From positions 1 to 35,285 of the forward strand of contig JBAXGN010000071.1 in the NCBI GenBank assembly GCA_037139415.1: DNA of 35,285 bases. Direction: 5' to 3'. Both the position numbers and the translations under genes were made by a program. The notes under the pieces were generated by a model. That model did not search any database. It was not told the DNA's origin and worked only from the letters and a program-made list of their open reading frames with translations. How positions within the stretch are numbered: position 1 is the first letter of the stretch; the number at the start of each line of letters is the position of its first letter. This document shows positions 1 to 30,577 of the stretch, in pieces. Origin of the DNA: Verrucomicrobiota bacterium (GTDB lineage Bacteria > Verrucomicrobiota > Verrucomicrobiia > Limisphaerales > Fontisphaeraceae).

Positions 1-490
1 GGTTTAGCCGTCCAAAAAACCTGCTGAAAAACCCCCTGCAATTCACCGGAATCAAAACTATAGTCTGACCCCGAATCCGGTTATGGTGGTTTCAATTTTA
101 TGCAAGTGCGACGCACATGCGCGCCACCATTGACACAAAAAGGCGAGACACATACGACATAACAACTGGCTAGCAGCAACTTTGTTCAATCTTTGGCCTT
201 TCCTGACATGCACCTATTCAGGATTGTCCGGAAAGGCATCCATCATCCCGGACGGAATGACAGACAGTAGCGTCATGAGGGGAACGGGGCATGACCTCCG
301 GAAAACCGTCCAATAAACCCAACTGCACCTTGAAGAGGTGCCAGAATCAATTCACCGCACCAATGCGAAATGTCGTTTTGCAATTGACCAGCGGGATCTT
401 TTTACGGATGGTCGGCAACATGATAATAAACTGGCTACCGAAGACAACGAACGGGAAGGGTGTTCAATAATACTGTTAGGCAAACCACCT
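1..490. other. Non-coding left edge with one copy of a ~140-bp repeat
   Basis: I see no convincing gene in this stretch. An open frame starting at 338 runs into the next gene, but its first 51 residues are hydrophilic and precede a clear signal peptide, so I treat it as untranslated. Positions 239-380 hold the first copy of a direct repeat that recurs at 1383-1520. The first 100 bases are A/T-rich with short C runs and resemble mobile-element end debris, but I cannot name an element. Confidence 0.5.
239..380 (+). repeat. Direct repeat R1, copy a (upstream of the BamE-like gene)
   Basis: This ~140-bp segment aligns with 1383-1520. Shared blocks include GGAACGGGGC, CGTCCAAT, GGTGCCAGAATCAATTCACC and CACCAATGCG, in the same order and with nearly the same spacing (offset about 1140). 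The two copies flank the gene at 491-1369. They could be recombination remnants of a duplicated upstream region or copies of a dispersed intergenic element. Confidence 0.75.
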
Positions 491-1369
491 ATGCATTTGT
501 GCCGCATTATTCTATTGATCCTGATCGCACTTGCTGGTGATTCAAACGGCGGCGAGACCAATTACTACGCGCATTTGATCGCCAGCGTGAATAAGGCTCT
601 GCCAGGCGTTCAACAGGTCACAGAATCCACGCTGTTAGACATCAACAATACCACAACAAAAACTCGCGGTTGCGTATTTCACCTCAACAGCATCGCTGCC
701 GGAGGACCGATTGCAAACATCCGTCTGAGCATGACCTTGGATGAGGTCATTGGCGTTTGGGGCAAGCCACCGGAATTATGGTGGAATTATCAGCGCGGGC
801 CTCGCCTGGACTACAGAGGCGTTACGCTTTACTTTGCGTCAAACAAACTCTCCGGCATTAGCATAAACAGTCCGGCACTCCGAGAACTTCAATTCGAGCC
901 GAACGTTCCTTCCCGCTCGACCATTACGAGGTGGCGGCAGCAAGAGCCCATGAATTGGACCCTGAACAGGAGCCGTAACGCACTTCAATTACAGCACACT
1001 AGCAAACAGATTCTGCTCACGCTTTCATTTCGCCATGGGGATAATGCCCCGTTGTTTCAACTGCGACTTGAGCAGTGCGCTACTCCACTCGTGCAATTGC
1101 CTCAACGGGGACTGAACCGGATCGGATCCTCTTACCTGCCCCCTTGTGATAAATTCGAGGCCTGTATTCTTGCCAAACTGGCAGCCATTGACCAGGGCTT
1201 CTGGTGGGGGGAACATAAAGATCCCGAGCCCGAGCTTGTAACGACGCTGCGCAGATCAGAAAAGTCATTCTGGCTGGTTTACTTCGAAGCGAAAATCCGC
1301 GCACCTGGCAGTAGCATTTTTGCCTGCATTGACCAAAATACAGGTGAAACAGAGATCGATACCGAATGA
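491..1369 (+). CDS. Secreted protein with SmpA/BamE-like motif (paralog of the 203-aa duplicated genes)
   Basis: This is a 292-residue exported protein of unknown function. I start it at ATG 491 because the residues MHLCRIILLILIALAG form a signal peptide; the frame stays open upstream but looks non-secretory. Around residue 80 it has LSMTLDEVIGVWGKP, which fits the G-M-T-x-x-E-V-x-x-x-W-G-K-P pattern of SmpA/OmlA/BamE-fold lipoproteins, followed by RLDYRGVTLYF. The same order (LLDxNNTT, then the GMTxDEV-WGKP block, then RLDY and a short beta segment) occurs in the two identical genes at 21360 and 25007, so these are paralogs. This member is longer, with an extra C-terminal region of about 120 residues containing several cysteines. 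A periplasmic location is inferred; the role is unknown. Confidence 0.7.
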   Translation: MHLCRIILLILIALAGDSNGGETNYYAHLIASVNKALPGVQQVTESTLLDINNTTTKTRGCVFHLNSIAAGGPIANIRLSMTLDEVIGVWGKPPELWWNYQRGPRLDYRGVTLYFASNKLSGISINSPALRELQFEPNVPSRSTITRWRQQEPMNWTLNRSRNALQLQHTSKQILLTLSFRHGDNAPLFQLRLEQCATPLVQLPQRGLNRIGSSYLPPCDKFEACILAKLAAIDQGFWWGEHKDPEPELVTTLRRSEKSFWLVYFEAKIRAPGSSIFACIDQNTGETEIDTE

Positions 1370-1937: not shown

Positions 1938-3443
1938 TCACTTCAACGGCTTCATGGTCAACGGATCGCGCAGCGGCAATTCGGTGAATCGGTCGCCTGC
2001 CAGCTTGAGGAGTTTCTCGGGATGATCCGGGTTGTCCTTCAGGATGACTTGTTTTTGGCCGACGACCAGAATGATGACTTCCGCCGGCTTAAGAAAACGT
2101 TTGGCTACGCGTTGCACATCCGCGCCGGTCACGGATTCAAAGCGTTGACGGTAGTTCTTGAACCAATCCGGGTCCGCCTGATACCGCCCCGTGAATTCCT
2201 CCATGGCCAAGGCCGCCGCCACCTGGCCTCTGGTCGCAAAGGCGCGAGGGAACGTGTCAATGAAGGAACGCTTGGCGGTATTTAACTCCTCATCGGTTAC
2301 CGGCGCAGTGGTCATCCGCTTGAGTTCATCCAGCACAATGCTGACGGCATACGCCACGGTATGCGACTTGGTCTGGAAACCAGCGGTGAATACGCCTGGG
2401 TAATACATTCCGCCCGCCAGGCTGGAACCGGCGGAGTAGGCCAGCCCTTCATCACTGCGGACGCGGTTCATAATGCGCGAGGTGAATCCGCCGCCGCCCA
2501 AAATATTGTTCATCACTTGGGACGCCACATAGTCGGGGTCATTACGCATAATGCCCGGCAATAGAATGCTCACGCGGCCTTGGTTCACGTCTTTGTCCAC
2601 CAGGTAGGCGCCCGGTTTGGCCATGGCGGTGTCCGTCGGGGGCTTGGATGCCACCTTGCCTTGGAATGGCCAGTTGCTGAACAAGGTTTCCAGCTTCGCA
2701 ATCATGGCTTCCCGATCAAAGTCGCCGTTTACCGCAACCAGGAAATTGCCCGGGTGAAACCAGTCATGGTGAAACGCCTCCAGGTCCGCGCGGGTGACGG
2801 ATTTAAGCGAGGCATCGGTGGTGTGGCGATTCACGAAAAACTTTTCGCCATAGGCCAGGAAGTTGCGCTCGCGTCCTTCAATCTGCGCGGACTCATCGTT
2901 GCGTTGTTTCAAGGATTGGTAAATCTGCTGTTTGCGCAGTTCGATCTTGTTGTCCTGAAAACGCGGCAAGGCCAGGACCTCGCGCAACAGCGCGAGTCCC
3001 TCGTCGAGGTCCTTGGATAGCAGATTCAGGCTCACGCTGCCCTGGGTGTCACCGACGCCGCTGTTTAATTGCGCCGCCAGGAAAGCCAGCCGCTCTTCCA
3101 GCTCTTCCGCCGATTTGGATTTAGTGCCGCCACGGGCAAGCAACCAGCCTGTCAGCTCGGTGACGCCCTCCTTGCCTGCCGGCTCCAGGTAATCACCCGT
3201 GCGAACATAAACGGTGATCGTGACCAGTGGCAGTTCGCGGTCGGGCACAACGTACGCCACGGGGCCGCTTTTCAATTGCACACGGTAATCCGCCGCCTTG
3301 GGCGGTTCAAAGGTGAGCGGCCCAAATTGCAGTTTCTCCGGACGATCCGGCACGGCGGCATCGCTGGCCGCCAGTGAAGTGAAGGAACATTGGCTGCCCA
3401 AGGCCACCAGCAACCACAGCATGGAGGTACGTGAAGACTTCAT
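1938..3443 (-). CDS. M16 family peptidase-like protein, non-catalytic partner
   Basis: This 501-residue protein has a signal peptide ([21 protein letters not shown]). It has the two-halved M16 (pitrilysin/insulinase-like) architecture, with an N-terminal domain opening [20 protein letters not shown] and a C-terminal domain with [22 protein letters not shown], a hallmark of the substrate-binding M16 half. Where active enzymes have H-x-x-E-H, this one reads [15 protein letters not shown], so all three zinc-motif positions are missing. It follows the catalytic M16 gene with only one base between stop and start (TAATATG) and has a strong ribosome-binding site (GGGAGG). Known paired bacterial M16 proteins work as an active/inactive heterodimer in the periplasm, and that arrangement is inferred here. 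The start at 3443 was preferred over an upstream one that would overlap the previous gene. Confidence 0.9.
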
Positions 3444-3444
3444 A

Positions 3445-5199
3445 TTATTTCCCTCCCTTTTCCAGTTCCGCAATGCGTTGCGCTAACTTTTTGGTCATAA
3501 ATTGATACAGGGGGCGGCTTTTTTCATCCACCTGGCTGGTGCGGGCTTCCAATGCCTGCAACTGTTGTTTGAGTTTGACGGGGTCCTTTTCTTTTTGAAA
3601 CTTGGCGGCCATGGTTTTGCCGGCTTCCTTCATTTCTGCCGGCAGGGCGGTCAGATCGGCATCTTCCGCAGTGTTGGCACCCGGCTTGCGGTTGTAAACC
3701 GCCACGCAACGGTTTTCGCGCAGCAGATATTTGTTGGCCACCCGTGTCAGGTCGGCGGCGGTTACCGCCTGATATTTCGGGCCGGACTCATTGATCGCCC
3801 GCCAATTGCCCATGCCATCATTGAAAATAAGCTGCATGAGAATGGCCATGTTGGACTGCAATTTGCGATACTCGTTGGCGGCAAAATTATTTTTGACCTT
3901 CTGTAATTCCTCGGCGGGCACTTCCTTTTCCTTGAGCGCCTCCAGTTCCTTGTAGATCGCCTTCTCCACTTCCTCCGGCGTGTGGCCTTCGCGGGCTTCG
4001 CCGCTCACATTGAAGAGGCCGGCCCATTTCATAGAATGCTGCGCGGCATCTGCCTCGGTGGCCACCTGGCTGCCCACCACCAAGCCCTTGTACAGACGGC
4101 CCGTGCGGCCATTCAGCACCTGGGCCAGCACCTGCAACGCGTAACTATCCGCATGGCCGAAACCGACCGAATGCCAGATGATGTCCACTTGCGGATTGGT
4201 GTCCGCCTCGGCGTACATCCGTTTTTCGGCGGGTTGCGTCGGCTCGATGGTCGGCACATCCGGCGGATTCTTTTGCCCGCGGGGAATCCGTCCGAAATAT
4301 TTCTCCATCTGTGCCAGGGCGGTCTCGGTTTTAAAATCACCGACCAGGATGGCTGTGATATTCTGCGGCGCGTAATACGTGGCGTAAAACTCATCCGCCT
4401 GCGCCTTCGAAATGGAGGCCACATCCGTCGGCCAGCCTATCACCGGCCAGTGATAGGGATGCGCCTGCCAGATCATGGAAGTGAACTCTTCCTCGAACTT
4501 TCCCAGCGGCGTGGATTCCGTCCGCATCCGGCGCTCTTCATAGACCACGTCCCGCTCGGCGTAAAATTCGCGGAATACGGGTCGCCACAGCCGCTCGGAT
4601 TCCATCCACATCCAGAGGTCCAGTTTATTGGCGGGGACGGTGATGAAGTAACCGGTGAGGTCATGCGTGGTAAACGCATTCATGCCGGACGCCCCTTGCG
4701 TGGTGTAAACGCGGTCGAACTCGTTCTTCACCTGAATATCCCGCTGTTGCTTGATGAGTTCCTGAAAGCTTTTCTCCAGTTCTTTCCAGCGCGCGGTCCG
4801 ATTCTCAGGTTTTTGCACGTCGTCAATTTCGCCGCGCCGATACAACGCCCGCATTTTGGCTTCCTCGGCCCGCATTTCCTCGCGCACCTTTTCCTGTTCC
4901 GCGATGATCTGGAGGTCCTTCTGGTAATCCTTGGTGCCGAGTGTGGGGGTGCCCTTGAACATCATGTGCTCAAAGAGATGCGCGGTGCCGGTGATGCCCG
5001 GTCGCTCGTTGCTGCTGCCCACGTGCGCCACCCAGCCACCCGCGATACTGGGATCATCATGCCGCTCCAACAGCAATACCCGCATGCCGTTGGATAACTG
5101 GTGTTCGGTGACCGGAACTTTTTGCGCCGGAACTTGGACTGCCCAAGCCAGCACCAGCAATCCCGCCAGACCGCATTTCAATGTACCATGCCGTTTCAT
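3445..5199 (-). CDS. M16 family zinc metallopeptidase, catalytic subunit
   Basis: This is a secreted zinc peptidase of about 584 residues. The signal peptide is [20 protein letters not shown]; two in-frame ATGs lie 6 and 18 bases further upstream, so the exact start is open. The inverted zinc motif HLFEH lies near residues 74-78, followed by MMFKGT. The third ligand is probably a glutamate in the segment VVYEERRMR. Between these is an unusually long charged insert (about residues 100-160, rich in E, K and R) that looks like a helical hairpin and is seen in some M16 enzymes. The C-terminal M16 half follows ([13 protein letters not shown]). The gene leads a two-gene operon with the inactive partner at 1938-3443 and is divergent from the oxidoreductase gene at 5361. 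Likely role: periplasmic degradation of peptides. Confidence 0.92.
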
Positions 5200-15502: not shown

Positions 15503-17133
15503 ATGATGCACGTCTTGCATTATTGTGCAGTCGTTATCTGGATGGCCAACTTACCGAGGCGGAACGGGCTGAGTTGGAGGACCTGCTGCGGCGATCATCC
15601 GCCGCACGGGAACAGTTCTGGAGGGAAACACGGCTACACGCGCAATTACATGAAGTCGAGAATGAAGGTGCTGAAACATTGCCGACACAACCCAGGCGGC
15701 TGACACTACCGCGTTGGGCGCAAAGCCCCGTCAATTGGCTGGCGATGGCGGCCTGCCTGGGACTTGCCTTGATATTGGCACTGCAATTCCACCCCCGGCA
15801 GAACATCGGGACGGATAATCCAGCCAACACGCCCCTGGAGTCCACGTCGGCGGCAGTGGCAGTGTTGACACATGGCGTGGATCTGGAGTGGCGCAAGCCG
15901 GAAGAGGCACGCAAAGTCGGGACCGCACTAGAGCCGGGCTGGTTGCGCCTGAAGGCGGGTTTGGCGCTGGTGGAGTTCTTTAATGGCGCGCGCGTCTTGC
16001 TGGAGGGGCCGGTGGAATTTCAACTGGTTTCTGCGACGAAGGGGTTTTGTGCGTCGGGTCGCTTAAGCGCAGAAGTACCGGCACACGCGCAGGGGTTCAC
16101 GATCATGACGCCGCAGGTGCGAGTGGTGGATCGTGGCACAGCGTTTGGCGTGAGTGTCGGCGCGCAAGCGGCGGAAGTGCATGTATTCAAGGGCAAGGTG
16201 GAGTTGCTGGAGAAGGTAACCCCGCAGCGGGACTTGCGGGAGGGGGAGGCAGTGACGGTTGCGGTTGATGGCACACTCCGTTCCATACCCACGCACAGCA
16301 CGGTATTTGCCTCGGTAGCAGAATTTGAGCGGCGGCTCACCGTTGTGCAGCGGCAGCAACTGGCGCAATGGCGCGCCGCAGCGCTACGATTGAATTCCGA
16401 TCCTGATTTGCTGTTACGGTTTGATTTTGAAATACCCGCCAATATACGGACGCTGCCGAACGTAACAGCGAAGCACTCATCCACTGGCGATGGCACCATT
16501 GTCGCTTGCGAGCGGGGCGAAGGCCGTTGGCCTGGCAAGAGCGCACTGGAGTTTCGCAGTATGGGCGACCGCGTGCGTGTCAACATCCCCGGTGAGTTTC
16601 GCTCAATAACGCTGACAGCTTGGGCACGCGTGGACGGCATTGAAAGGGCGTTCAATTCCTTGTTCATGTGCGAAGGATATGGCAAGGGCGGATTCCATTG
16701 GCAGATTTCGCGCAAGGGGGATGTAAAATTAGGCGTCAAACTGGATAATCAGAAAGACAAGGCCACCGATTATTGCAGTCCAGTCATTTTTACGCCCGAG
16801 CGCCTTGGCCGCTGGGTACACCTCGCTGTTGTCTATGATGCTGAGGCAAAGCAGGTGACGCATTTTGTGGATGGCGTGGCGGTAAGTCGTGAAGCTACGC
16901 GCTTCGTAGTGCCGCTCCGCATCGGCAATGCTGACGTGGGAAACTGGAGCTTGGGCACGCACAGCACTATTTACCCGGTACGCCATTTCAGCGGTCGCAT
17001 GGATGAACTGGCGCTGTATGGCCGGGCCTTGCGGGAAGCGGAAATCCAACAACTTTATGCCATAGGCGTGCCCATGAGCCTGGAGACACACGCAGCCGTC
17101 AACGCCCAATCCGGAATCCCCGAACAACAATGA
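15499..17133 (+). CDS. FecR domain-LamG domain membrane protein (probable anti-sigma regulator)
   Basis: This 544-residue protein has four parts. A cytoplasmic N terminus (about 1-50; LLCSRYLDGQLTEAERAELE) resembles the zinc-less anti-sigma helix bundle. One membrane helix lies at about 79-97 (WLAMAACLGLALILALQF). A FecR beta domain follows at about 165-255, with FTIMTPQVRVVDRGTAFGVS and VHVFKGKVELLE. A C-terminal LamG/concanavalin A-like jelly roll spans about 300-525, with SITLTAWARVDG, RWVHLAVVYD and FSGRMDELALYGRALREAEI. FecR proteins relay periplasmic signals to a cognate ECF sigma factor; here the sigma gene overlaps it by 4 bases. The lectin-like domain suggests that it binds a glycan. 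It also overlaps the fucosidase gene by 4 bases. Confidence 0.92.
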   Translation: MNDARLALLCSRYLDGQLTEAERAELEDLLRRSSAAREQFWRETRLHAQLHEVENEGAETLPTQPRRLTLPRWAQSPVNWLAMAACLGLALILALQFHPRQNIGTDNPANTPLESTSAAVAVLTHGVDLEWRKPEEARKVGTALEPGWLRLKAGLALVEFFNGARVLLEGPVEFQLVSATKGFCASGRLSAEVPAHAQGFTIMTPQVRVVDRGTAFGVSVGAQAAEVHVFKGKVELLEKVTPQRDLREGEAVTVAVDGTLRSIPTHSTVFASVAEFERRLTVVQRQQLAQWRAAALRLNSDPDLLLRFDFEIPANIRTLPNVTAKHSSTGDGTIVACERGEGRWPGKSALEFRSMGDRVRVNIPGEFRSITLTAWARVDGIERAFNSLFMCEGYGKGGFHWQISRKGDVKLGVKLDNQKDKATDYCSPVIFTPERLGRWVHLAVVYDAEAKQVTHFVDGVAVSREATRFVVPLRIGNADVGNWSLGTHSTIYPVRHFSGRMDELALYGRALREAEIQQLYAIGVPMSLETHAAVNAQSGIPEQQ

Positions 17134-18554
17134 ACACCCCGTTACACCATGGTTTGCTTTGGCTAACCCTCTGCGGACCGGCTTTAACCGTACCTGCTTA
17201 TGAACTACCGCCCGAGGCGAAGCAGGTACCTGCCAAAATCGAAATACCAGCCGGCCCCTTTCAGCCCAGTTGGGCATCGCTGGAGAAATACCAAGTGCCG
17301 GATTGGTTCCGGGATGGGAAATTCGGCATCTTTGTCCATTGGGGGCCGCAGACGCTGGCCGGAGCCAAAGATGGTTCGGCGGATGGCTCCAAGACCCTCA
17401 ATTGGCAGGATTACGCCGCCGCCTTTCGTGGGGACAAGTTTGATGCGAAGCACTGTGCCGAAATTTTTCGCAAATCCGGCGCAAAATACGTAGTGCAAGT
17501 CGCCGAGCATCACGATGGCTATGCGCTCTACGACTCGTCATACACGCCCTGGACATCGGTAAAGATGACGCCCAAGCGCGATTTCGTTGCCGAACTGGCG
17601 GCGGCACTCCGCAAAGAGGGGCTGATCTTTGGCGCGTCCTCCCATACCGAGGAGCATTGGTGGTTCTACGATAATCCGCCGAAGAAAGCGCCGCCCGCTC
17701 CCTTGCCGGGAAGGCCCGTCCCCCCGCAGCCGGACAAGGCGTTTCTGGATTGGTGGTACGCCCGGCTGGTCGAGATCGTGGACAAATACCATCCGCAAAT
17801 CATGTGGTTCGATTGGTGCATTGAGCAGCCGGGGTATGATCCGTATCTCCAGCAGTTTGCCGCTTACTATTACAACCGGGCCGCCGAATGGAAGCAGGGC
17901 GTGGTCCTCAATTACAAATACAACGCCATCCCAACGGACGCCGCCGTCTTGGATATTTCGTGGAACACCAGCCGGTTCTCCTGGCGTCCCGAGCGGATCA
18001 ACCCCACCCCGTGGCAATTCGACACCATGTCCAACCGCAGTTATTGGTTCTGGCGCGCCGACATGGAGATGCGCCCCGTGGCCGAGATGCTCTGCGAACT
18101 CGCGGACGTCATCAGCAAGAACGGCAACTACCTCCTCAACATCCCGCCTGCGCCCGACGGCACGTTGACTCCGGGCCAGGAAAAGATTCTCATCGAGATC
18201 GGACGTTGGCTAACCATCAACGGCGAAGCGATCTACGGCACGCGACCGTGGAAAGTTTTCGGCGAAGGCCCGACCGAAGGACTCGGCCCGAAGTTCCAGG
18301 GCAATCCACCGAAGGCACCCTATACATCGCAAGACATCCGGTTCACAACGAAGGGCGATACGCTCTACGCCATTGTGCTGGCCTGGCCGGAGAACCGGAT
18401 GGTGACCATCAAGTCGCTGGCCGATTGTAAAATCAAGGCCGTGCGCCTGCTCGGTTGCGATGCGCCGGTGAAATGGACTGGGAACTCCATCGAGTTACCC
18501 GCGAACGCCAGCGCGGGCGCGCCGTGTGTTCTCAGAATCCAACACGACCAGTGA
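17130..18554 (+). CDS. Alpha-L-fucosidase, GH29
   Basis: This 474-residue secreted glycosidase has the signal peptide MNTPLHHGLLWLTLCGPAL and a GH29 (beta/alpha)8 barrel. Family hallmarks are WFRDGKFGIFVHWGPQTLAG, the AKYVVQVAEHHDGYALYDS segment with paired histidines, and KRDFVAELAAALRKEGLIFG. The probable nucleophile is Asp228 in QIMWFDWCIE. The barrel ends with SKNGNYLLNIPPAPDGTL, typical of the family. GH29 enzymes release terminal alpha-L-fucose from fucosylated glycans with retention. The start overlaps the stop of the FecR/LamG gene (ATGA), placing the enzyme in the sigma factor's transcription unit. It has a short C-terminal beta domain and no obvious carbohydrate-binding module. Confidence 0.95.
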   Translation: MNTPLHHGLLWLTLCGPALTVPAYELPPEAKQVPAKIEIPAGPFQPSWASLEKYQVPDWFRDGKFGIFVHWGPQTLAGAKDGSADGSKTLNWQDYAAAFRGDKFDAKHCAEIFRKSGAKYVVQVAEHHDGYALYDSSYTPWTSVKMTPKRDFVAELAAALRKEGLIFGASSHTEEHWWFYDNPPKKAPPAPLPGRPVPPQPDKAFLDWWYARLVEIVDKYHPQIMWFDWCIEQPGYDPYLQQFAAYYYNRAAEWKQGVVLNYKYNAIPTDAAVLDISWNTSRFSWRPERINPTPWQFDTMSNRSYWFWRADMEMRPVAEMLCELADVISKNGNYLLNIPPAPDGTLTPGQEKILIEIGRWLTINGEAIYGTRPWKVFGEGPTEGLGPKFQGNPPKAPYTSQDIRFTTKGDTLYAIVLAWPENRMVTIKSLADCKIKAVRLLGCDAPVKWTGNSIELPANASAGAPCVLRIQHDQ

Positions 18555-21251: not shown

Positions 21252-21357
21252 AAATCACCCTTGCTTCCTTAACGGGGGTGGGCGTAGGTTTCCAATCATG
21301 AATCGTGAGCCAAAAGTCATGCGCCTTTACTGCAAGGCGACCTGTGAACATCAACTT
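21252..21357 (+). repeat. Intergenic element E1, copy 4a (inside duplication copy A)
   Basis: This copy begins AAATCACCCTTGCTTCC, has GGGGGTGGGCGTAGG and ATCGTGAGCCAAAAGTCATG, and ends GGCGACCTGTGAACAT. It lies between the esterase relic and the 203-residue gene. A short frame from ATG 21298 (MNREPKVMRLY...) runs through the element and stops at TGA 21361-21363, overlapping the next gene's ATG, so it could be a coupled leader peptide. Insertions between copies break that frame, so I do not call it a gene. Confidence 0.75.
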
Positions 21358-21359
21358 CT

Positions 21360-21971
21360 ATGAGAATCATGCTTCAATACTTTGCTGGTCTGGTCTGGCT
21401 TGTCGCCACGAGTTGTCCGGGCGCAGACCAATCGTATTACCAAAGTTATCTGGCCTTGGTGGGCACCAACGATGAATGCCAAATCGGGTACGTTTGTTCT
21501 CCGCTTTTGTTGGATACAAATAATACCACGCCTAAACTTACCAACGAGGTGATCAACCTGCATGACAGCAATGTTCAAGGGTGCCTCGGCAAGATTTGCC
21601 TTGGAATGACCATGGACGAGGTGGTTGCTGCCTGGGGTAAACCGCAGCGGTTTTATTCCCGATGTCTCGGCGGGCGGCGTCTTGATTACTGGGACGCAAT
21701 TGTGATATTTGATCCCGGCAGCAATTCGGTTTTGAAAATCATTTCCAAGCGTAATGAGAATCGCCGCTTTGAAAAGGGCCTTAGCGCGTCCTCTCCAATG
21801 GCAGACTTTATTCAAATTCTTGGCACTCCCACCAGACGTTCCGATGACCCTCCTTATTGCAATTTAATGTATGATATGCCTGCTGGGACTTTGAATCTGC
21901 ATTTTTATGTGAATCTCCTTTCCAGCTTCCGCTTGGAGCGCCGGTCTGATAAACCTGTGCCAAAGCAATAA
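21360..21971 (+). CDS. Secreted SmpA/BamE-like protein, duplicate 1
   Basis: This is a 203-residue exported protein with signal peptide MRIMLQYFAGLVWLVATSCPGA. In the mature part, LLLDTNNTT precedes ICLGMTMDEVVAAWGKPQ, the G-M-T-x-x-E-V-x-x-x-W-G-K-P motif of the SmpA/BamE fold, then RLDYWDAIVIFDPGS. A second, weaker copy of the motif follows (SPMADFIQILGTPTRR), suggesting two half-domains. Several cysteines are present. The protein is identical to the one at 25007-25618 and related to the one at 491-1369. BamE-fold proteins usually bind other envelope proteins; the partner here is unknown. An upstream element E1 forms its whole leader region. Confidence 0.8.
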   Translation: MRIMLQYFAGLVWLVATSCPGADQSYYQSYLALVGTNDECQIGYVCSPLLLDTNNTTPKLTNEVINLHDSNVQGCLGKICLGMTMDEVVAAWGKPQRFYSRCLGGRRLDYWDAIVIFDPGSNSVLKIISKRNENRRFEKGLSASSPMADFIQILGTPTRRSDDPPYCNLMYDMPAGTLNLHFYVNLLSSFRLERRSDKPVPKQ

Positions 21972-22516: not shown

Positions 22517-22622
22517 AAAATTCCCCCTTGATTCCCTAACCGGGGCGGGCGTAGGGTCGCCGGCATGCAGCGTGAGCCAACAGCAGTGTCTTTACCGCAG
22601 CGCGACCCATGAGCGCATCATT
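22517..22622 (+). repeat. Intergenic element E1, copy 2
   Basis: This copy reads AAAATTCCCCCTTGATTCCC, then CCGGGGCGGGCGTAGGGTC, CAGCGTGAGCCAACAGCAGT and CCGCAGCGCGACCCATGAGC. It lies 43 bp upstream of the esterase start at 22666 and matches the other four copies in block order. An alternative in-frame ATG (22609) for the esterase falls inside this copy. Confidence 0.75.
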
Positions 22623-22665
22623 GAACTCGAAGCCAATGCCATCCCGTGGCGTCTTCCGCAACATC

Positions 22666-24201
22666 ATGACCGGAAAACTGCTTTGCCTCGCCCTTTTATT
22701 CCCGTGCCTGGCTGGGGCCACCGTTCACCTCCCCCATCTGTTCTCGCATGGCATGGGGTTGCAGCGGGATCAGCCGGTGCCGTTCTGGGGTTGGGCGGAG
22801 CCGGGGGAGAGCGTGACGGTGGAGTTCGCCGAGCAGGTGAAGCCCGTGAAGGCCGATGCCACCGGCAAGTGGCAGATCGCGCTGGATCCCCTGCCCGCCA
22901 GCGCGGCGCCGCGAACCTTGCGGATCAATTCAGCAAGCGTCACCAACGTGCTCGTCGGCGATGTTTTTCTTTGCTCGGGCCAATCCAACATGGCGATGTC
23001 CATGGAGGCCGCCCGCCGCTACCCGGGAACTGCGGAGGACATCCAGTCCACCAGCCTGCCGGCGGTGCGCTTCTTCCAAGCCCCCAACGCCACGTTCCGG
23101 GAAACGCCGCAGGAGGATGTGGAGGCCAAATGGGAACCCGTGGCGCCGGCCAACAATGCCCACCTCTCCGCCGTGGCGTTTTACTTCGCGAAATCCCTGC
23201 ATGCGCACCTCCAGGTGCCGCTCGGCATCCTGCGCGCCTCCCATGGCGGCGGCTCCGCGGAGATCAAAATGCCCCGGGAAGCCCTGCTCTCCGTGCCCAG
23301 CGGCAAGAAGTTCTATGAAGATGCCATCAAGCGCGCCAGCCCGGAAAGCGTGGCGGCCCGCAACCGCATCTTCCAGGAGCGTTATGAGGCCGCCGTCCGC
23401 GATGCCAAGGCCAAAGGCGCCAAACCGCCCGAGCCGCCCAAGCCGGTTTCGGCCGTGGATGGCGGTTACCCGTGCAGCGATTGGAACGGCGTCATTGCGC
23501 CGATCATCCCCTACGCCAAGCGCGGCATCGTCTGGTACCAGGGCGAACACAACGCCGGGCGCGCCTTTGCCTACCGGGAGATTTTCCCCGCGCTGATCCG
23601 CAGTTGGCGCGCGGCCAGCGGCCAGCCGGGCCTGCCGTTCCTCTTCGTGCAATTGCCCGCCTACGATTCGCCGGGCAAAAGCGATGACTGGGCCACCCTG
23701 CGCGAATCCATGCTGGTGACACTGCAAACCGTGACCAACACTGCGATGATCGTGACCATTGACCATGGCGAGCGGGACAACATCCACCCCGCCGACAAGC
23801 AACCCGTCGGCGAACGGCTGGCCCTGGAGGCGCGGCGGCTGATCTACGGCCAACCGGTGACCGGGTGCGGGCCGTTGTACGCCAGGTTCACCGTGGATGG
23901 CGCGAACCTCGTCGTGCGATTTCGTGACACGGGCGTCTCGCCCGTGAGTCTGAGCGCGACCACCACCCCAGCCATGGGCGGGACGCCCATGCTCCTCAGC
24001 GGCTTCACGCTTGCCGGTGAAGATCGCAAATTCGTGGCGGCCACGGCGGTGATTCGTGGCAACACCGTGGTCCTCAGCAGTCCCGCCGTGCCCAAGCCCG
24101 TGGCGGCGCGGTATGCGTGGGCCAACTGGCCGCAACCCAGCCTGTTCGACGCTCAAGGCTTGCCCGCCTCCCCCTTCCGCACAGATGACTGGGAGAAATA
24201 G
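22666..24201 (+). CDS. Sialate O-acetylesterase (SGNH/DUF303 family)
   Basis: This 511-residue secreted esterase has the signal peptide MTGKLLCLALLFPCLAGA. It removes O-acetyl groups from sialic acids so that sialic-acid enzymes can act. The serine motif is VFLCSGQSNM, with the nucleophile Ser107. The Asp-His pair is in DNIHPADK (Asp371, His374), and GVIAPIIPYAKRGIVWYQGE is a family hallmark. The start at 22666 rather than 22609 is supported by the relic at 21090, whose homology begins exactly at this ATG. Near the C terminus (about residues 420-445) the coding frame contains two perfect DNA hairpins of a REP-like element. It probably serves with the sialic-acid operon at 26.3-29.9 kb. Confidence 0.93.
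   Translation: MTGKLLCLALLFPCLAGATVHLPHLFSHGMGLQRDQPVPFWGWAEPGESVTVEFAEQVKPVKADATGKWQIALDPLPASAAPRTLRINSASVTNVLVGDVFLCSGQSNMAMSMEAARRYPGTAEDIQSTSLPAVRFFQAPNATFRETPQEDVEAKWEPVAPANNAHLSAVAFYFAKSLHAHLQVPLGILRASHGGGSAEIKMPREALLSVPSGKKFYEDAIKRASPESVAARNRIFQERYEAAVRDAKAKGAKPPEPPKPVSAVDGGYPCSDWNGVIAPIIPYAKRGIVWYQGEHNAGRAFAYREIFPALIRSWRAASGQPGLPFLFVQLPAYDSPGKSDDWATLRESMLVTLQTVTNTAMIVTIDHGERDNIHPADKQPVGERLALEARRLIYGQPVTGCGPLYARFTVDGANLVVRFRDTGVSPVSLSATTTPAMGGTPMLLSGFTLAGEDRKFVAATAVIRGNTVVLSSPAVPKPVAARYAWANWPQPSLFDAQGLPASPFRTDDWEK
23928..23991. repeat. REP-like double palindrome inside the esterase coding frame
   Basis: Two perfect 8-bp-arm hairpins lie 26 bp apart: CACGGGCGTCTCGCCCGTG at 23928-23946 (loop TCT) and CATGGGCGGGACGCCCATG at 23973-23991 (loop GGA). 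Their core arms, GGGCG and CGCCC, are shared. They translate as DTGVSPV and AMGGTPM, a peptide pair I associate with palindromic elements recurring in Verrucomicrobia and Planctomycetes proteins. The insertion keeps the frame open. Confidence 0.8.
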
Positions 24202-24898: not shown

Positions 24899-25004
24899 AA
24901 ATCACCCTTGCTTCCTTAACGGGGGTGGGCGTAGGTTTCCAATCATGAATCGTGAGCCAAAAGTCATGCGCCTTTACTGCAAGGCGACCTGTGAACATCA
25001 ACTT
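24899..25004 (+). repeat. Intergenic element E1, copy 4b (inside duplication copy B)
   Basis: This is identical to the element at 21252-21357, as part of the 732-bp duplication. It ends two bases before the ATG at 25007. Confidence 0.75.
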
Positions 25005-25006
25005 CT

Positions 25007-25618
25007 ATGAGAATCATGCTTCAATACTTTGCTGGTCTGGTCTGGCTTGTCGCCACGAGTTGTCCGGGCGCAGACCAATCGTATTACCAAAGTTATCTGG
25101 CCTTGGTGGGCACCAACGATGAATGCCAAATCGGGTACGTTTGTTCTCCGCTTTTGTTGGATACAAATAATACCACGCCTAAACTTACCAACGAGGTGAT
25201 CAACCTGCATGACAGCAATGTTCAAGGGTGCCTCGGCAAGATTTGCCTTGGAATGACCATGGACGAGGTGGTTGCTGCCTGGGGTAAACCGCAGCGGTTT
25301 TATTCCCGATGTCTCGGCGGGCGGCGTCTTGATTACTGGGACGCAATTGTGATATTTGATCCCGGCAGCAATTCGGTTTTGAAAATCATTTCCAAGCGTA
25401 ATGAGAATCGCCGCTTTGAAAAGGGCCTTAGCGCGTCCTCTCCAATGGCAGACTTTATTCAAATTCTTGGCACTCCCACCAGACGTTCCGATGACCCTCC
25501 TTATTGCAATTTAATGTATGATATGCCTGCTGGGACTTTGAATCTGCATTTTTATGTGAATCTCCTTTCCAGCTTCCGCTTGGAGCGCCGGTCTGATAAA
25601 CCGGTGCCAAAGCAATAA
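25007..25618 (+). CDS. Secreted SmpA/BamE-like protein, duplicate 2
   Basis: This 203-residue protein is identical to that encoded at 21360-21971; the only nucleotide change in the gene is silent. It has the same signal peptide, the ICLGMTMDEVVAAWGKP block and the RLDYWDAIVIF segment. Two identical copies in one locus may raise dosage or simply reflect a recent duplication that has not yet decayed. Confidence 0.8.
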   Translation: MRIMLQYFAGLVWLVATSCPGADQSYYQSYLALVGTNDECQIGYVCSPLLLDTNNTTPKLTNEVINLHDSNVQGCLGKICLGMTMDEVVAAWGKPQRFYSRCLGGRRLDYWDAIVIFDPGSNSVLKIISKRNENRRFEKGLSASSPMADFIQILGTPTRRSDDPPYCNLMYDMPAGTLNLHFYVNLLSSFRLERRSDKPVPKQ

Positions 25619-26299: not shown

Positions 26300-27220
26300 T
26301 TATTGAATCCATTTCCAGAAGCCGATTTTCTCCAACGCGGATTCCAATTGCTGAATTTCTTCGGCCGCCAGGTTTCCGTTCGGCAGGCGTGCGGGACCAA
26401 CGGGAACCCCCAGCAACCCCATCAGCGCCTTGGCCGCGCCAAGGTAGCCGGACGGCGTGGCAACCAATGTCTTTACCAATTGCGCGCCCCGGAATTGCTC
26501 CATGCGCGCGGTGTCCAGATCCCCGGCGTTGAAGGCTTTGATGATCCGATGATAGACGGGCGCGGCGAAACAATAGCCGCTGCCGACCGCGCCTTTGGCG
26601 CCCAGGGCGAGTGCGGCCAGCATGAATTCGTCATTGCCCCAGGGCAGGTCGAACACTCCGCCAGCGGCGCGCATGGCAAACTGGTAATTGTACATGTCCA
26701 CGTTGGTCCATTTGATGCCGGCCAGGTTGGGAATTCGTTCGCCGCCTTGTTCGAGAAATTCCGGCATGGCGAGACTCACCCCGGTAAGCGCGGGGATATC
26801 ATAAAAATAGAAGGGCAGCGCAGGTGCGCCTTCGGCGATGTGGACGCAGCACTCCACCAGCGCGTTGACGTTGCGCGGCTTGAAATAGGATGGCGCCAGG
26901 GCGGAGATGGCGACCGCACCGTGTTTTTGCGCATGGGCGGCAAGCGTCCGGGCGTCCTCGATGCAATTGGACCCCACATGGACCACGACCTTGAGCTTGG
27001 TGTCTTTGGTGACGGCCAGCCAGCGTTCCGCAAGCAGGGTGCGTTCGATCAGTGAAAGCGAATGGCTTTCACCGGTGCTGCCGTTGATGAAGGCGGTGGT
27101 GATTTTGTTCTTGAGGAAATGCGCCGCTTGTTTTTCGACAACGGCCAGGTTGAGCGATCCATCCGCTTTGAACGGCGCATGGGCAGCCGCGACGAGCCCG
27201 TGAAGTTTGAATGATGACAT
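26300..27220 (-). CDS. nanA: N-acetylneuraminate lyase (DHDPS/NAL family)
   Basis: This 306-residue class I aldolase cleaves N-acetylneuraminate to N-acetylmannosamine and pyruvate in the cytoplasm. Residues 47-52 are GSTGES, the pyruvate carboxylate-binding motif; members of this family that act on sialic acid carry G-S-T-G-E. Tyr140 in LPFYFYDIPALTG and Lys170 in NLAGIKWTN are the expected catalytic tyrosine and Schiff-base lysine. Related DHDPS enzymes differ at these flanking residues, and the neighbours (epimerase, transporter) support NanA. It is the last gene of a minus-strand operon, 53 bp after the MFS transporter gene. Confidence 0.93.
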   Translation of the reverse strand: MSSFKLHGLVAAAHAPFKADGSLNLAVVEKQAAHFLKNKITTAFINGSTGESHSLSLIERTLLAERWLAVTKDTKLKVVVHVGSNCIEDARTLAAHAQKHGAVAISALAPSYFKPRNVNALVECCVHIAEGAPALPFYFYDIPALTGVSLAMPEFLEQGGERIPNLAGIKWTNVDMYNYQFAMRAAGGVFDLPWGNDEFMLAALALGAKGAVGSGYCFAAPVYHRIIKAFNAGDLDTARMEQFRGAQLVKTLVATPSGYLGAAKALMGLLGVPVGPARLPNGNLAAEEIQQLESALEKIGFWKWIQ

Positions 27221-27273
27221 GATTAATTTTGTGTTAATGGTGAAGGTTGATTGATGCGATATAAATCAGGGGT

Positions 27274-28515
27274 TCAGGTTTTGTCTTCGCTGCCGCAATC
27301 CCGCTGCCGGGGGCGGAGCAGGAGCATTAGAATCATGGCGAGGATGGAGGGGATGACGCAAAGCGCAAATCCCGTGGCCAGCGGCACCCCATGATCCTTA
27401 AGCCTGCCCAGCAAGGGTGTCAGGTACGCGCCGGCGGCAATACCGGCAAAATTCATCAAACCATACGCCGTGGCGCGGAGGTGCGGCGGCACGACCTGAC
27501 AGGCAATGGGCATGTTGTTGGTGTCAAAAAAGCCGAATCCAAAGCCATAAAGACCGGCGCAGATCATCACCAGCCAAAAGGCCGGAGCCATCCCCATGCC
27601 CAGCAATGCCGGCACAGTGAGGAAGAGCCCCAAGGCACTGACCCAAGTGCGACCGCCCAAATGGCGTTGTGAGAGCAGGTCGGAAATCCTGCCACCGATC
27701 ATCACCCCAAAAAATGAGGCGCCGGCGGTGAGGCTGGTCGCCCAGAGACCGGAATGCTTTTGATCCAATAAGAAGCGATCCTGCAATAGGGTCGGCAACC
27801 AGTTCTTGACCGCCCAACCCGGCAGGCTGGGCAGCGAAAAGCAGGCGAGCAAGATAATAAAACCGAGCCAGTGTACGTTGGAAAAATCACGCGACCCAAC
27901 CGGCTGGGTATTATTGGCATTCTGATGGCTCCGGGTGTCAGTCTCATGCAGGAAGATCGCCAGCACCAGCGCATAGGCCACGCCAATGCCGCCGCATCCG
28001 GCAAACGCTGCGTGCCAGGAAATATCCTGGGCCACCCAGCCGCCCACACCACCCAGCGCCTGTCCCATATAAATCCCGCTCATGTGAATACCGACGGCCA
28101 GTGAACGCGTGGGCCCGCGGTGAAAATCTGCGATTAAAGATAGCCCGGCGGGAATATAGACTGCCTCGCTGATGCCCATGACGGCACGCAGGCAATACAG
28201 CGTGAAAAAGTCATGGGTGACGCCCATGCTTATTGTGACGGCAGACCAAACGGCCAGGCTGAATACGATGAGCCATTTACGATTAAAACGGTCGGCAAAC
28301 ACGCCGCTGAGGGGACTGCAGATTGCATAGACCCACATGAAGATGGCCATCAGCATGCCAAAGGTCTCGGCGCTTTTCAGCGCCGGGATATCCACCTGCA
28401 TGGACAGCTTCATCGTCGCCAGCATTTGCCGGTCGAGATAATTCAATAGCGCGACCGGCCAGAGCAGGATAACCACCCGCCATGGCGAAATTTGATTTGC
28501 CGCTGAACGATTCAT
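27274..28515 (-). CDS. MFS transporter, probable sialic acid permease
   Basis: This 413-residue protein has about 12 membrane helices and belongs to the anion:cation symporter branch of the major facilitator superfamily (ExuT/NanT style). Near the N terminus is WPVALLNYLDRQMLATMK, the N-Y-x-D-R signature. GVFADRFNRKWLI is the loop 2-3 motif and GGRISDLLSQRHLGGRTW is its repeat in the second half. I start it at ATG 28515 because this ATG overlaps the TGA of the Kelch fragment (ATGA). Sialic acid is the inferred substrate, from its position between the epimerase and lyase genes. Confidence 0.9.
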   Translation of the reverse strand: MNRSAANQISPWRVVILLWPVALLNYLDRQMLATMKLSMQVDIPALKSAETFGMLMAIFMWVYAICSPLSGVFADRFNRKWLIVFSLAVWSAVTISMGVTHDFFTLYCLRAVMGISEAVYIPAGLSLIADFHRGPTRSLAVGIHMSGIYMGQALGGVGGWVAQDISWHAAFAGCGGIGVAYALVLAIFLHETDTRSHQNANNTQPVGSRDFSNVHWLGFIILLACFSLPSLPGWAVKNWLPTLLQDRFLLDQKHSGLWATSLTAGASFFGVMIGGRISDLLSQRHLGGRTWVSALGLFLTVPALLGMGMAPAFWLVMICAGLYGFGFGFFDTNNMPIACQVVPPHLRATAYGLMNFAGIAAGAYLTPLLGRLKDHGVPLATGFALCVIPSILAMILMLLLRPRQRDCGSEDKT

Positions 28516-28703
28516 TCCGGATTCCATATCCAAACTTCGGGCGACCGCACCCCGCGCCGGACCTCACCAATGGGGATCACATATCCACCATTCCAGAGAA
28601 CAACTGCCACGGTGGCGCGCGGTGCCGACATTCTACCAATGATGGGCCACTTGTCCAACTCCGGATTGTACTCCAGGATTTCCGACCTGAAACCTGTATT
28701 CAT
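28512..28703 (-). pseudogene. Kelch-repeat remnant of an N-acetylneuraminate mutarotase (NanM-like)
   Basis: This 63-residue frame carries only one or so Kelch blades: SEILEYNPELDKWPIIGRMS, then a strand and loop GGYVIPIGEVRRGVRSPEVW. Kelch blades have the 'Y-x-P-x-x-x-x-W' and 'G-G' pattern, and the tail I-x-x-G-E-x-x-x-G-V-R-S-P is what I know from NanM and related bacterial Kelch proteins of sialic-acid loci. NanM speeds the alpha-to-beta conversion of sialic acid and is about 350 residues long, so this is a fragment. Its ATG overlaps the epimerase stop and its TGA overlaps the transporter start (both ATGA), so the neat junctions remain while the body was lost. Confidence 0.78.
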
Positions 28704-29875
28704 GCCTCTTCCAGAAGTTGCCAGCAGTACCACAGCATTCTTGGTAAATGGAATGGGCCTTTCCACAGTGAGCCTTTGAGGGTGTTGGCAGGCGTGCCAT
28801 CGCGCCGGAGGTAGCCGAACCATTCACCGTGCCTGGGGTCGGCAAAATGTTTAAAGGACCAGTCGTGGACGAGTTTGTGCCAACGGGCGTATTTTTTATC
28901 ACCGGTCATTCGCCAAGCCAGGAGCGTGGCAATGATGGCTTCATTGTGAGGCCACCAGAATTTCATGTCTTGCCAGTATTCCTGCACGGGCAGATTGCGG
29001 AGGTCGCGGAAATAAAAAAAGCCTCCAAATTCACGATCCCAGCCCCGGTCCCACATGCCATCCAGAATGCTCAATCCGAGCTTCGCCAGCTTGTTATCGC
29101 CACGAATCTTTGCCTCATGCAGGATGAACCATGCGCATTCGATGGCATGACCGGGATTTAACATGCGCCCGTCAAAGTGATCGTAAATCTCGCCTTTGGG
29201 TCCCACCACCTCCATGAGCGCCTTAAGCCTGGGTTTAAAGAAATCCCGTTTGATTTCATGGATGGCCCGGTCAATCCATTCCGAGCAGGTTGCTCCCAGT
29301 ACCGGCACATCACCCAGGTTGGCGCGAAATTCCTGCGCCGTGACGATGGTGATCATCAACGGGGCGAGCGCCTTCATTGGGCGGGTATCTGGATTCACTT
29401 TGGCGGGAGCGTGGCCCGGTTCAAAGTTGAACTTTAGGAACATGGTAAACGCTTTGTGCGCATCCCGTTCGGCCGATTTATCACCCGTAGCCTTTGCGTA
29501 AGCGGCAAAGGCGATAGCGGCAAAACATTCGGAATACACATAGCGCCGCATGCGAAGTGGACGTCCCTCGCGCGTGACCGTAAAATACATCTTGCCGGAT
29601 TCGGCATAACAATGCTGCCGGGCAAAGTTCAAGCAGCTCGCGGCGGCCTCAAGCCACTGCTTTCGTGGCTCAATGGTGTTGTATAAAGTGGCAAACATCC
29701 AGGCTGCCCGCCCTTGAAACCAGACCGATTTATCCGTATCCACTACCGAGCCGACCCGATCCAATGCCGTCATGATGCCGCCATGCTTTTTGTCCATGCC
29801 ATTCTTGAGCCAGAACGGCATAACATCCTTAAGCAGGGTGTCGCGATAACAACCGATCATATCTTGCAGCTTCAT
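28700..29875 (-). CDS. N-acylglucosamine 2-epimerase (AGE family)
   Basis: This 391-residue (alpha/alpha)6-barrel enzyme interconverts N-acetylmannosamine and N-acetylglucosamine, which moves the product of the lyase into amino-sugar metabolism. Family hallmarks are SVWFQGRAAWMF (Arg56), YSECFAAIAFAAYAKATGD, MLNPGHAIECAWFILHEA (His243) and WWPHNEAIIATLLAW (His310), then HGEWFGYLRRDG. I start at 29875 (MKLQDMIGCYRDTLL) because the residues before it lack similarity. It heads the minus-strand operon epimerase, Kelch remnant, transporter, lyase. It probably replaces the NanE/NanK route used by other bacteria. Confidence 0.94.
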   Translation of the reverse strand: MKLQDMIGCYRDTLLKDVMPFWLKNGMDKKHGGIMTALDRVGSVVDTDKSVWFQGRAAWMFATLYNTIEPRKQWLEAAASCLNFARQHCYAESGKMYFTVTREGRPLRMRRYVYSECFAAIAFAAYAKATGDKSAERDAHKAFTMFLKFNFEPGHAPAKVNPDTRPMKALAPLMITIVTAQEFRANLGDVPVLGATCSEWIDRAIHEIKRDFFKPRLKALMEVVGPKGEIYDHFDGRMLNPGHAIECAWFILHEAKIRGDNKLAKLGLSILDGMWDRGWDREFGGFFYFRDLRNLPVQEYWQDMKFWWPHNEAIIATLLAWRMTGDKKYARWHKLVHDWSFKHFADPRHGEWFGYLRRDGTPANTLKGSLWKGPFHLPRMLWYCWQLLEEA

Positions 29876-30577
29876 CGGGTAAACGTGTTCGTGCGTAGTT
29901 TGTGTGAATTCAACGGCGGAATACAGGAAAAAATGGAGGTGCATTGTCTAATCAGGCACGTATTCGGCGGGGTGTGGCCGCGATGAGCAGGGGCGGTTGT
30001 TGTCGCTCACGAATTGGAGCGACTTTGCCAATGGCACCGGGGAACGGGTGACGCGGTGGGAGTATGACAGTTATCGCGGCTGGCGCACCAATAAGGTGTA
30101 TCCCGATGGTGATAGTATCGGATACATAGATAGTCCCGCTGGGCGATTTGGCCAGTGTCAATTATTCGAATGGCACCACGCCAGTCAGCACGTTTGGCTA
30201 TGACCGACGAGGGTTGGTGTACGGTGTCACCAATGGGAGTGACCGGGCCACCTATCGTTATGTTGCCGGGGTCAACTCGGCGCTTGTGCAGGATCGGATT
30301 ATGAGGCATAACAATTCCGTGATCAATGCGTCTGCCAGAATTTATGACCGGCTGAATCGCTTGACGAGTCTGGTCGCCACGACGCCCTCACCGATTCATC
30401 CACCAGCGGGGGGCCCGTTTCATCTGCACTGCGCGATGGCGGAGGCGCGTTGCCGCACGGAAGTGCCGGTGTTGCGCGAACTCACGCCGGGGCACTGGGT
30501 CTCGTGCCATCTGTGTCCGTGAGATCAGTCTTCCGAAATTGCCCGTCGCGGTCTTGCTTCAGCGGGTTGGTGTTTTT
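29876..30577. other. Intergenic region with Rhs relic
   Basis: This gap between the epimerase start and the end of the beta-helix gene contains the YD-repeat relic described separately at 29990-30400. After it (30400-30577) I see only short open frames with unusual composition and no recognisable domain. The first ~80 bases should contain the promoter of the sialic-acid operon; I could not identify it. Confidence 0.5.
29990..30400 (+). pseudogene. YD-repeat (Rhs family) relic with frameshift and internal deletion
   Basis: Frame one (from about 29997) reads LTNWSDFANGTGERVTRWEY, then DSYRGWRTNKVYPDGDSIGY up to SPAGRF. A frameshift follows, and frame two reads LASVNYSNGTTPVSTFGYDR, RGLVYGVTNGSDRATYRY, and ARIYDRLNRLTSLVA. 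These are typical YD repeats of large Rhs/wall-associated proteins found in Verrucomicrobia. The two halves normally sit further apart, so a deletion between 'SPAGR' and 'LASVNYSN' is likely. No start, signal or C-terminal toxin domain remains. Confidence 0.8.

What the first reader, a model, noticed from the sequence alone, without database searches (positions are those of the whole stretch)
26300..29875. Sialic-acid catabolic operon with a truncated NanM inside its translationally coupled chain
The minus-strand order is AGE epimerase, Kelch fragment, MFS transporter, NanA. The 63-residue Kelch frame has ATGA overlaps on both sides, so it could still be translated and keep ribosomes moving into the transporter gene. 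A full NanM mutarotase appears to have been cut to about one blade without disturbing its neighbours.
Basis: partly seen in the sequence, partly recalled or inferred. Interest (0 to 1): 0.7.

Follow-up and report, generated by a model that had tools for sequence, protein, structure and literature searches.

The report
Mutarotase gene remnant in sialic-acid operon
A bacterial operon that looks built for using sialic acid still carries the last sixty or so codons of a sugar-converting enzyme whose larger front part was lost in frame, leaving the neighbouring genes intact: ordinary gene loss, seen unusually cleanly.

Summary
On the minus strand lie an AGE-type epimerase (29875-28700), a 63-codon Kelch frame (28703-28512), an MFS transporter (28515-27274) and a NanA-like lyase (27220-26300), with real ATGA overlaps on both sides of the Kelch frame. 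The frame is the C-terminal blade of a NanM-like Kelch mutarotase. The closest relative found, L109, has the same four genes in the same order with a 377-codon Kelch gene; the window's frame is 73% identical to its last 59 residues and exactly 942 nt shorter. L109 and three other relatives have stop/start overlaps at both junctions, so the coupled chain is ancestral and the loss left it intact. The same short product was not seen in 320 searched genomes of the order; at least two of them carry Kelch genes broken in other ways. The genome keeps an intact Kelch mutarotase and a YhcH-type gene elsewhere, and NanM loss cost E. coli nothing in a published competition test. The remnant has no internal stop and is not clearly evolving faster, so the loss is recent or the remnant weakly constrained. 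Whether it is translated or matters for coupling was not testable. A clean relic of a known kind; low interest.

The parts
28700..29875 (-). AGE-type N-acylglucosamine 2-epimerase gene (ATG at 29875; a longer frame opens at ATG 29944)
   Evidence: PF07221 E 1.9e-46; NF052547 E 9.3e-114, below its cut-off; 77.6% identical to L109
28512..28703 (-). 63-codon remnant of a NanM-like Kelch mutarotase gene: start codon plus C-terminal blade
   Evidence: 72.9% identical over 59 residues to the end of the full-length L109 gene; 942 nt shorter
28700..28703 (-). ATGA overlap of epimerase stop and remnant start
   Evidence: sequence; same kind of overlap in 7 of 10 relatives with this junction
28512..28515 (-). 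ATGA overlap of remnant stop and transporter start
   Evidence: sequence; 4-nt overlap (ATGA, GTGA or TTGA) in 18 of 33 relatives with this junction
27274..28515 (-). MFS transporter gene, probably the sialic-acid transporter
   Evidence: PF07690 E 2.6e-47; 74.4% identical to L109
26300..27220 (-). NanA-like N-acetylneuraminate lyase gene
   Evidence: PF00701 E 6.8e-46; best NCBIfam model NF003164 N-acetylneuraminate lyase E 4.5e-40, below its cut-off

Best explanation
The 63-codon frame is the remnant of a full-length NanM-like Kelch mutarotase gene that stood second in an ancestral epimerase-mutarotase-transporter-lyase operon. Shown: relative to L109 the gene is shorter by exactly 942 nt (314 codons), lacks the region of the N-terminal hydrophobic segment and most of the propeller, and keeps a start codon at the epimerase stop, the last blade, both 4-nt overlaps and intact neighbours. 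Inferred: the loss was one in-frame deletion, perhaps between short GTTTC-like repeats; the remnant is not a working mutarotase; ribosomes ending the epimerase may restart on it and pass to the transporter; the loss was tolerated because anomerisation is partly spontaneous and the genome keeps another Kelch mutarotase and a YhcH-type gene.
For: Same four genes, same order, full-length Kelch in L109, L131 and L157; epimerase-Kelch-transporter in 6 relatives, with overlaps at both junctions in 4 of the 6. 72.9% identity over 59 residues. Of 84 matches to the 63-mer other than the window's own in 320 genomes of the order, 81 lie in frames of at least 351 aa. The rest of the lost gene was not found elsewhere in the genome except as the distinct C37 copy. 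Other genomes of the order have broken Kelch genes: G041 keeps only the part matching residues 220-369 of the G052 protein, G208 is split between two frames. NanM-deficient E. coli was not outcompeted on Neu5Ac (PMC8141875, passages).
Against: The remnant has no internal stop, and pN/pS (0.22, bootstrap 0.13-0.36) and relative rates do not exceed those of intact neighbours clearly, which is also what a retained gene would show. No congeneric genome turned up to watch it decay. The breakpoint cannot be placed exactly.
Confidence: 0.87

Rival explanations
1. The remnant has been retained as a small functional gene: a short translated bridge between epimerase and transporter, or a one-blade protein with a role of its own.
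For: Frame open, both overlaps kept, no clear acceleration. SD-like GGAAGAGG just before its start. GE-x5-R residues conserved in the blade across the family are kept. AlphaFold gives the blade a moderate-confidence sheet (pLDDT 80.9, pTM 0.50), and beta-propeller blades can be recruited and amplified (PMC6805158, passages).
Against: Same short product not seen in relatives. The window alone departs at 3 of 27 strongly conserved columns against 1 of 27 for L109. L036 and L145 couple epimerase to transporter directly, so no bridge is needed. A single PkwA blade was an unfolded monomer (PMC6805158, passage).
Confidence: 0.08
2. Assembly artefact: the real genome has a full-length Kelch gene and the short form is a misjoin in a fragmented assembly.
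For: The genome is held as 378 contigs, and a 704-nt exact repeat lies a few kb away, so misjoins are possible in principle. No reads could be examined.
Against: The missing part was not found elsewhere in an assembly of 98% estimated completeness. The length difference is a multiple of three and keeps the frame, which a random misjoin would do about one time in three.
Confidence: 0.05

Closest known systems
NanM/YjhT N-acetylneuraminate mutarotase family (PF24996; TIGR03547; cyclically permuted form TIGR03548; structure 2UVK)
   Same: The full-length relative L109 passes PF24996 (98.4 bits, cut-off 45), matches 2UVK by sequence (E 4.3e-14) and is predicted as a Kelch propeller. The remnant is the end of such a protein.
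   Different: The remnant has 63 residues and one blade and lies below every curated cut-off. Even the full-length relatives are below the NCBIfam cut-offs, and the match runs in permuted order.
nanLET-type sialic-acid cluster (Bacteroides fragilis; lyase, AGE-type epimerase, MFS transporter)
   Same: Lyase, epimerase and MFS transporter side by side. That nanLET is an alternative to nanA/K/E was seen in a passage of PMC4747158; its gene make-up is recalled.
   Different: Different gene order and a Kelch gene (here a remnant) inside the chain; sialic-acid use not tested.
Termination-reinitiation at overlapping stop and start codons (PMC6728339)
   Same: ATGA overlaps at both ends of the remnant; in that paper 13 of 14 tested pairs were strictly coupled (abstract).
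   Different: Here the middle cistron is a gene remnant, and coupling is untested.
Gene relics inside operons (pseudogenes left by in-frame deletion)
   Same: Truncated frame between intact neighbours, full-length gene in relatives.
   Different: No known case was compared; the frame is still open and both overlaps are kept.

Membership tests
NanM mutarotase (working member) | Whole-protein score above the curated PF24996 cut-off | tested here: not met
   20.6 bits against 45 for the remnant; the L109 relative scores 98.4
NanM mutarotase (working member) | Complete Kelch propeller | tested here: not met
   63 residues, one blade; the L109 relative is 377 residues and matches whole Kelch propellers
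NanM mutarotase (working member) | Exported protein | tested here: inconclusive
   The remnant lacks the region of the hydrophobic N-terminal segment of L109, predicted as helix 13-29 at low confidence; no signal-peptide program was run
NanM mutarotase (working member) | Neu5Ac anomerase activity | not testable with these tools
   needs an assay
Relic of a NanM-like Kelch gene | Full-length homologue in the same operon position in relatives | tested here: met
   L109, L131, L157 (four genes); L038, L094, L101 (three genes)
Relic of a NanM-like Kelch gene | Loss of constraint on the remaining sequence | tested here: inconclusive
   pN/pS 0.22 (0.13-0.36); 3 of 27 conserved columns broken in the window only, 1 of 27 in L109 only
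Conserved small gene | Same short product in relatives | tested here: not met
   Not seen in 320 genomes of the order or in 384 of the class drawn from a larger group; no congeneric genome turned up
Sialic-acid catabolic operon of nanLET type | Lyase, AGE-type epimerase and MFS transporter adjacent | tested here: met
Sialic-acid catabolic operon of nanLET type | Products specific for Neu5Ac and ManNAc | tested here: inconclusive
   best NCBIfam models are N-acylglucosamine epimerase and N-acetylneuraminate lyase, both below cut-off
Translationally coupled gene chain | Overlapping stop and start codons | tested here: met
   ATGA at 28703-28700 and 28515-28512
Translationally coupled gene chain | Downstream translation depends on upstream translation | not testable with these tools
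   needs reporters or ribosome profiling

The most novel reading that the evidence does not exclude
The remnant has been kept because it is translated as a short bridging cistron that passes terminating ribosomes from the epimerase to the transporter and so preserves their expression ratio: a gene relic kept for the act of being read and not for its product.
Probability: 0.08. Interest if true: 0.45.

Novelty: new member of a known kind. Interest (0 to 1): 0.2.

Why it matters
It shows how an operon can lose a middle gene without breaking its chain of overlapping stop and start codons, because the loss was in frame and kept both ends. It is a natural object for testing whether relic cistrons serve as ribosome bridges. 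For sialic-acid biology it adds to the signs that this Kelch mutarotase is dispensable: at least two other genomes of the order carry broken Kelch genes, and one of them (G041) has the epimerase coupled directly to the transporter. Otherwise it is ordinary gene loss.

Tried and rejected
Conserved small gene: not supported, since the same short product was not seen in relatives. The three other short Kelch frames in the order were read and compared with full-length proteins: G150 is cut by the contig end; G041 keeps only the part matching residues 220-369 of the G052 Kelch protein; G208 is split between two frames, its match starting at residue 137. None resembles the window's remnant. A fourth match, G287, has a TAG inside the match, and only residues 147-366 match; it may be a further broken gene and was not read further.

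Recent copy of the intact Kelch gene on C37 of the same genome: rejected, 47% identical to the remnant against 73% for L109.

Decay test: pN/pS and relative rates do not separate the remnant from intact neighbours. Synonymous differences are near saturation and the stretch is short, so this neither dates the loss nor shows selection.

Breakpoint: the first 18 nt of the remnant match the start of the L109 Kelch gene at 14 places; for the 14 nt after ATGA the match is 10 of 14, a score reached at 4 of 1120 positions of the L109 gene, the start included. Suggestive only; the short-repeat idea is inference.

Fold: 2UVK was not among the 50 rows shown for the L109 model; this is no evidence against membership. 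The remnant's model had no match at E 0.001 or better; its best were designed and natural Kelch propellers at E 0.05 and above.

Literature: searches for NanM/mutarotase/sialic acid/Kelch, cyclically permuted mutarotase, sialic acid with Verrucomicrobi, NanM and operon (no paper), coupling with pseudogene and deletion (12 of 36 listed), nanLET and single blade. No title or abstract start in these listings described such a remnant; papers not opened may. Four papers were opened: PMC8141875, PMC6805158 and PMC4747158 (passages) and PMC6728339 (abstract and outline).

Script slips: one search set the transporter frame one base off, corrected; one search printed the L109 transporter in a wrong frame, corrected; one search stopped before its last step, redone.

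Full report
Observation. The window is one contig of a genome of 7.9 Mb held as 378 contigs, 98% estimated completeness. A genome of the same order, G007, has contigs of the same lengths as a record titled Verrucomicrobia bacterium, so the organism is most likely a verrucomicrobiote. On the minus strand lie an AGE-type epimerase (29875-28700), a 63-codon frame (28703-28512), an MFS transporter (28515-27274) and a NanA-like lyase (27220-26300). Epimerase stop and remnant start share ATGA; remnant stop and transporter start share ATGA. The 63 residues match the NANM family weakly and single blades of Kelch propellers by sequence; their predicted structure is most like Kelch blades, without a significant match.

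What it is. The best, L109 (an uncultured bacterium), has the same four genes in the same order. Identities to the window are epimerase 77.6%, Kelch C-terminus 72.9% over 59 residues, transporter 74.4%, lyase 67.2%. Its Kelch gene has 377 codons, and the two genes differ by exactly 942 nt. The homology begins at residue 4 of the remnant; the start codon lies at the epimerase stop in both. In L109 the epimerase stop overlaps the Kelch start by ATGA and the Kelch stop overlaps the transporter start by GTGA.

Breadth. Over loci L032-L193 and the window, identical junctions counted once, epimerase-Kelch adjacency occurs in 10 relatives (Kelch frames 354-510 aa, stop to stop), 7 with a 4-nt overlap. 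Kelch-transporter adjacency occurs in 33 relatives, 18 with a 4-nt overlap. Five short Kelch frames in the second set (L111, L121, L154, L173, L184) run to the edge of the stored locus. Epimerase-Kelch-transporter occurs in L038, L094, L101, L109, L131 and L157, with overlaps at both junctions in L038, L101, L109 and L157. Two relatives, L036 and L145, join epimerase directly to transporter by ATGA with no Kelch gene between. In many other loci the epimerase has none of these neighbours. So the coupled chain is older than the window's lineage, and the Kelch gene is one of its changeable members.

No matching small gene seen. The 63-mer was searched in 320 genomes of the order: 79 genomes matched, with 85 matches listed, one of them the window's own. 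Of the other 84, 81 lie in frames of at least 351 aa, one of these (G287) with a TAG inside the match. The three short ones were read: G150 is cut by a contig end, G041 keeps only the later part of the gene, G208 is split between two frames. G041 is also the genome whose epimerase is joined directly to the transporter (L036). In 384 genomes of the class, drawn from a larger group, 20 matched at E 1e-10 or better, the window's genome included, and the only short frame was the window's. Only two genomes of the same family, and none of the same genus, appeared in these searches; neither matched. This is the main gap in the case.

Is the remnant decaying? It has no internal stop. Against L109, pN/pS is 0.22 (bootstrap 0.13-0.36), beside 0.17 for the epimerase, 0.24 for the transporter and 0.30 for the lyase. 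Over 53 distinct outgroup segments, differences private to the window average 3.3 and those private to L109 3.2. Among 27 columns conserved at 70% or more, the window alone departs at 3 (P to S, P to A, S to I), L109 alone at 1. This fits a loss that is recent compared with the split from L109, or weak constraint; the data do not separate the two.

Function and tolerance of the loss. The full-length L109 protein is predicted as a Kelch propeller (mean pLDDT 86.5; top VIA-align row Z 33.3, 279 residues aligned). Its hydrophobic N-terminal segment is predicted as a helix (13-29) at low confidence (block pLDDT 53-58), which suggests export; no signal-peptide program was run. The remnant lacks that segment. 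In E. coli NanM is periplasmic, YhcH is a cytoplasmic anomerase that serves NanA, spontaneous anomerisation speeds up with pH, and strains without NanM were not outcompeted on Neu5Ac while strains without YhcH were (PMC8141875, passages). The window's genome keeps an intact Kelch gene at C37 (frame 15816-17204) that passes PF24996, and a YhcH/DUF386 gene at C48; it also has 19 BNR_2 sialidase-type matches at E 0.001 or better, not all over the cut-off. Loss of this copy could therefore be borne; that is inference.

Mechanism proposed. An in-frame deletion joined the start region of the mutarotase gene to its last blade. Because both ends were kept, the epimerase can still end at the remnant's start and the remnant at the transporter's start. 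Ribosomes could go on by termination-reinitiation, strict in 13 of 14 tested overlapping pairs (PMC6728339, abstract). An SD-like GGAAGAGG stands just before the remnant start (by eye). None of this was tested for the window. A one-blade product is unlikely to act as an enzyme: a single blade of the propeller PkwA was an unfolded monomer (PMC6805158, passage). L036 and L145 show that the epimerase can also be joined straight to the transporter.

Verdict. It is a clear example of a known kind, a gene relic inside an operon. The one open and mildly interesting point is whether the relic is kept as a ribosome bridge.

Noticed in passing
window 21252-21955 and 24899-25602 (+): A 704-nt exact direct repeat, 3647 nt apart, holding nearly all of two copies of a 203-aa frame (21360-21971, 25007-25618); the first copy's protein has no Pfam match. 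Recent duplication or an assembly effect.
   Followed up: partly
window 22609-24201 (+) and 17130-18554 (+): A sialic-acid-specific acetylesterase (SASA, PF03629) and an alpha-L-fucosidase (PF01120) gene lie in the same window, which fits a host-glycan-using region.
   Followed up: partly
L089 (G041:C18), about 4145-4594 (minus): A Kelch gene lacking its 5' part; the same genome has the epimerase joined directly to the transporter (L036), so its mutarotase seems to be decaying by another route.
   Followed up: partly
L091 (G208:C36), about 99-805 (+): A Kelch gene split between two frames; the same genome has a long-frame Kelch match on C363.
   Followed up: partly
L197 (G287:C326:5000-9500), about 2216-2872 (minus): A Kelch match with a TAG inside and no match to the first 146 residues of the G052 protein; possibly another broken gene.
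   Followed up: no
L032 2943-4154 and 404-3028 (minus): In G007 the Kelch gene after the epimerase is followed by an 875-aa frame that holds a second Kelch domain and, by eye, a sodium-solute-symporter-like part: a possible mutarotase-transporter fusion. Many Kelch matches of the order lie in frames above 800 aa.
   Followed up: no
window 29950-30520: Short frames upstream of the epimerase read by eye like a YD/Rhs-repeat fragment; the 124-aa frame 30148-30522 has no Pfam match.
   Followed up: no
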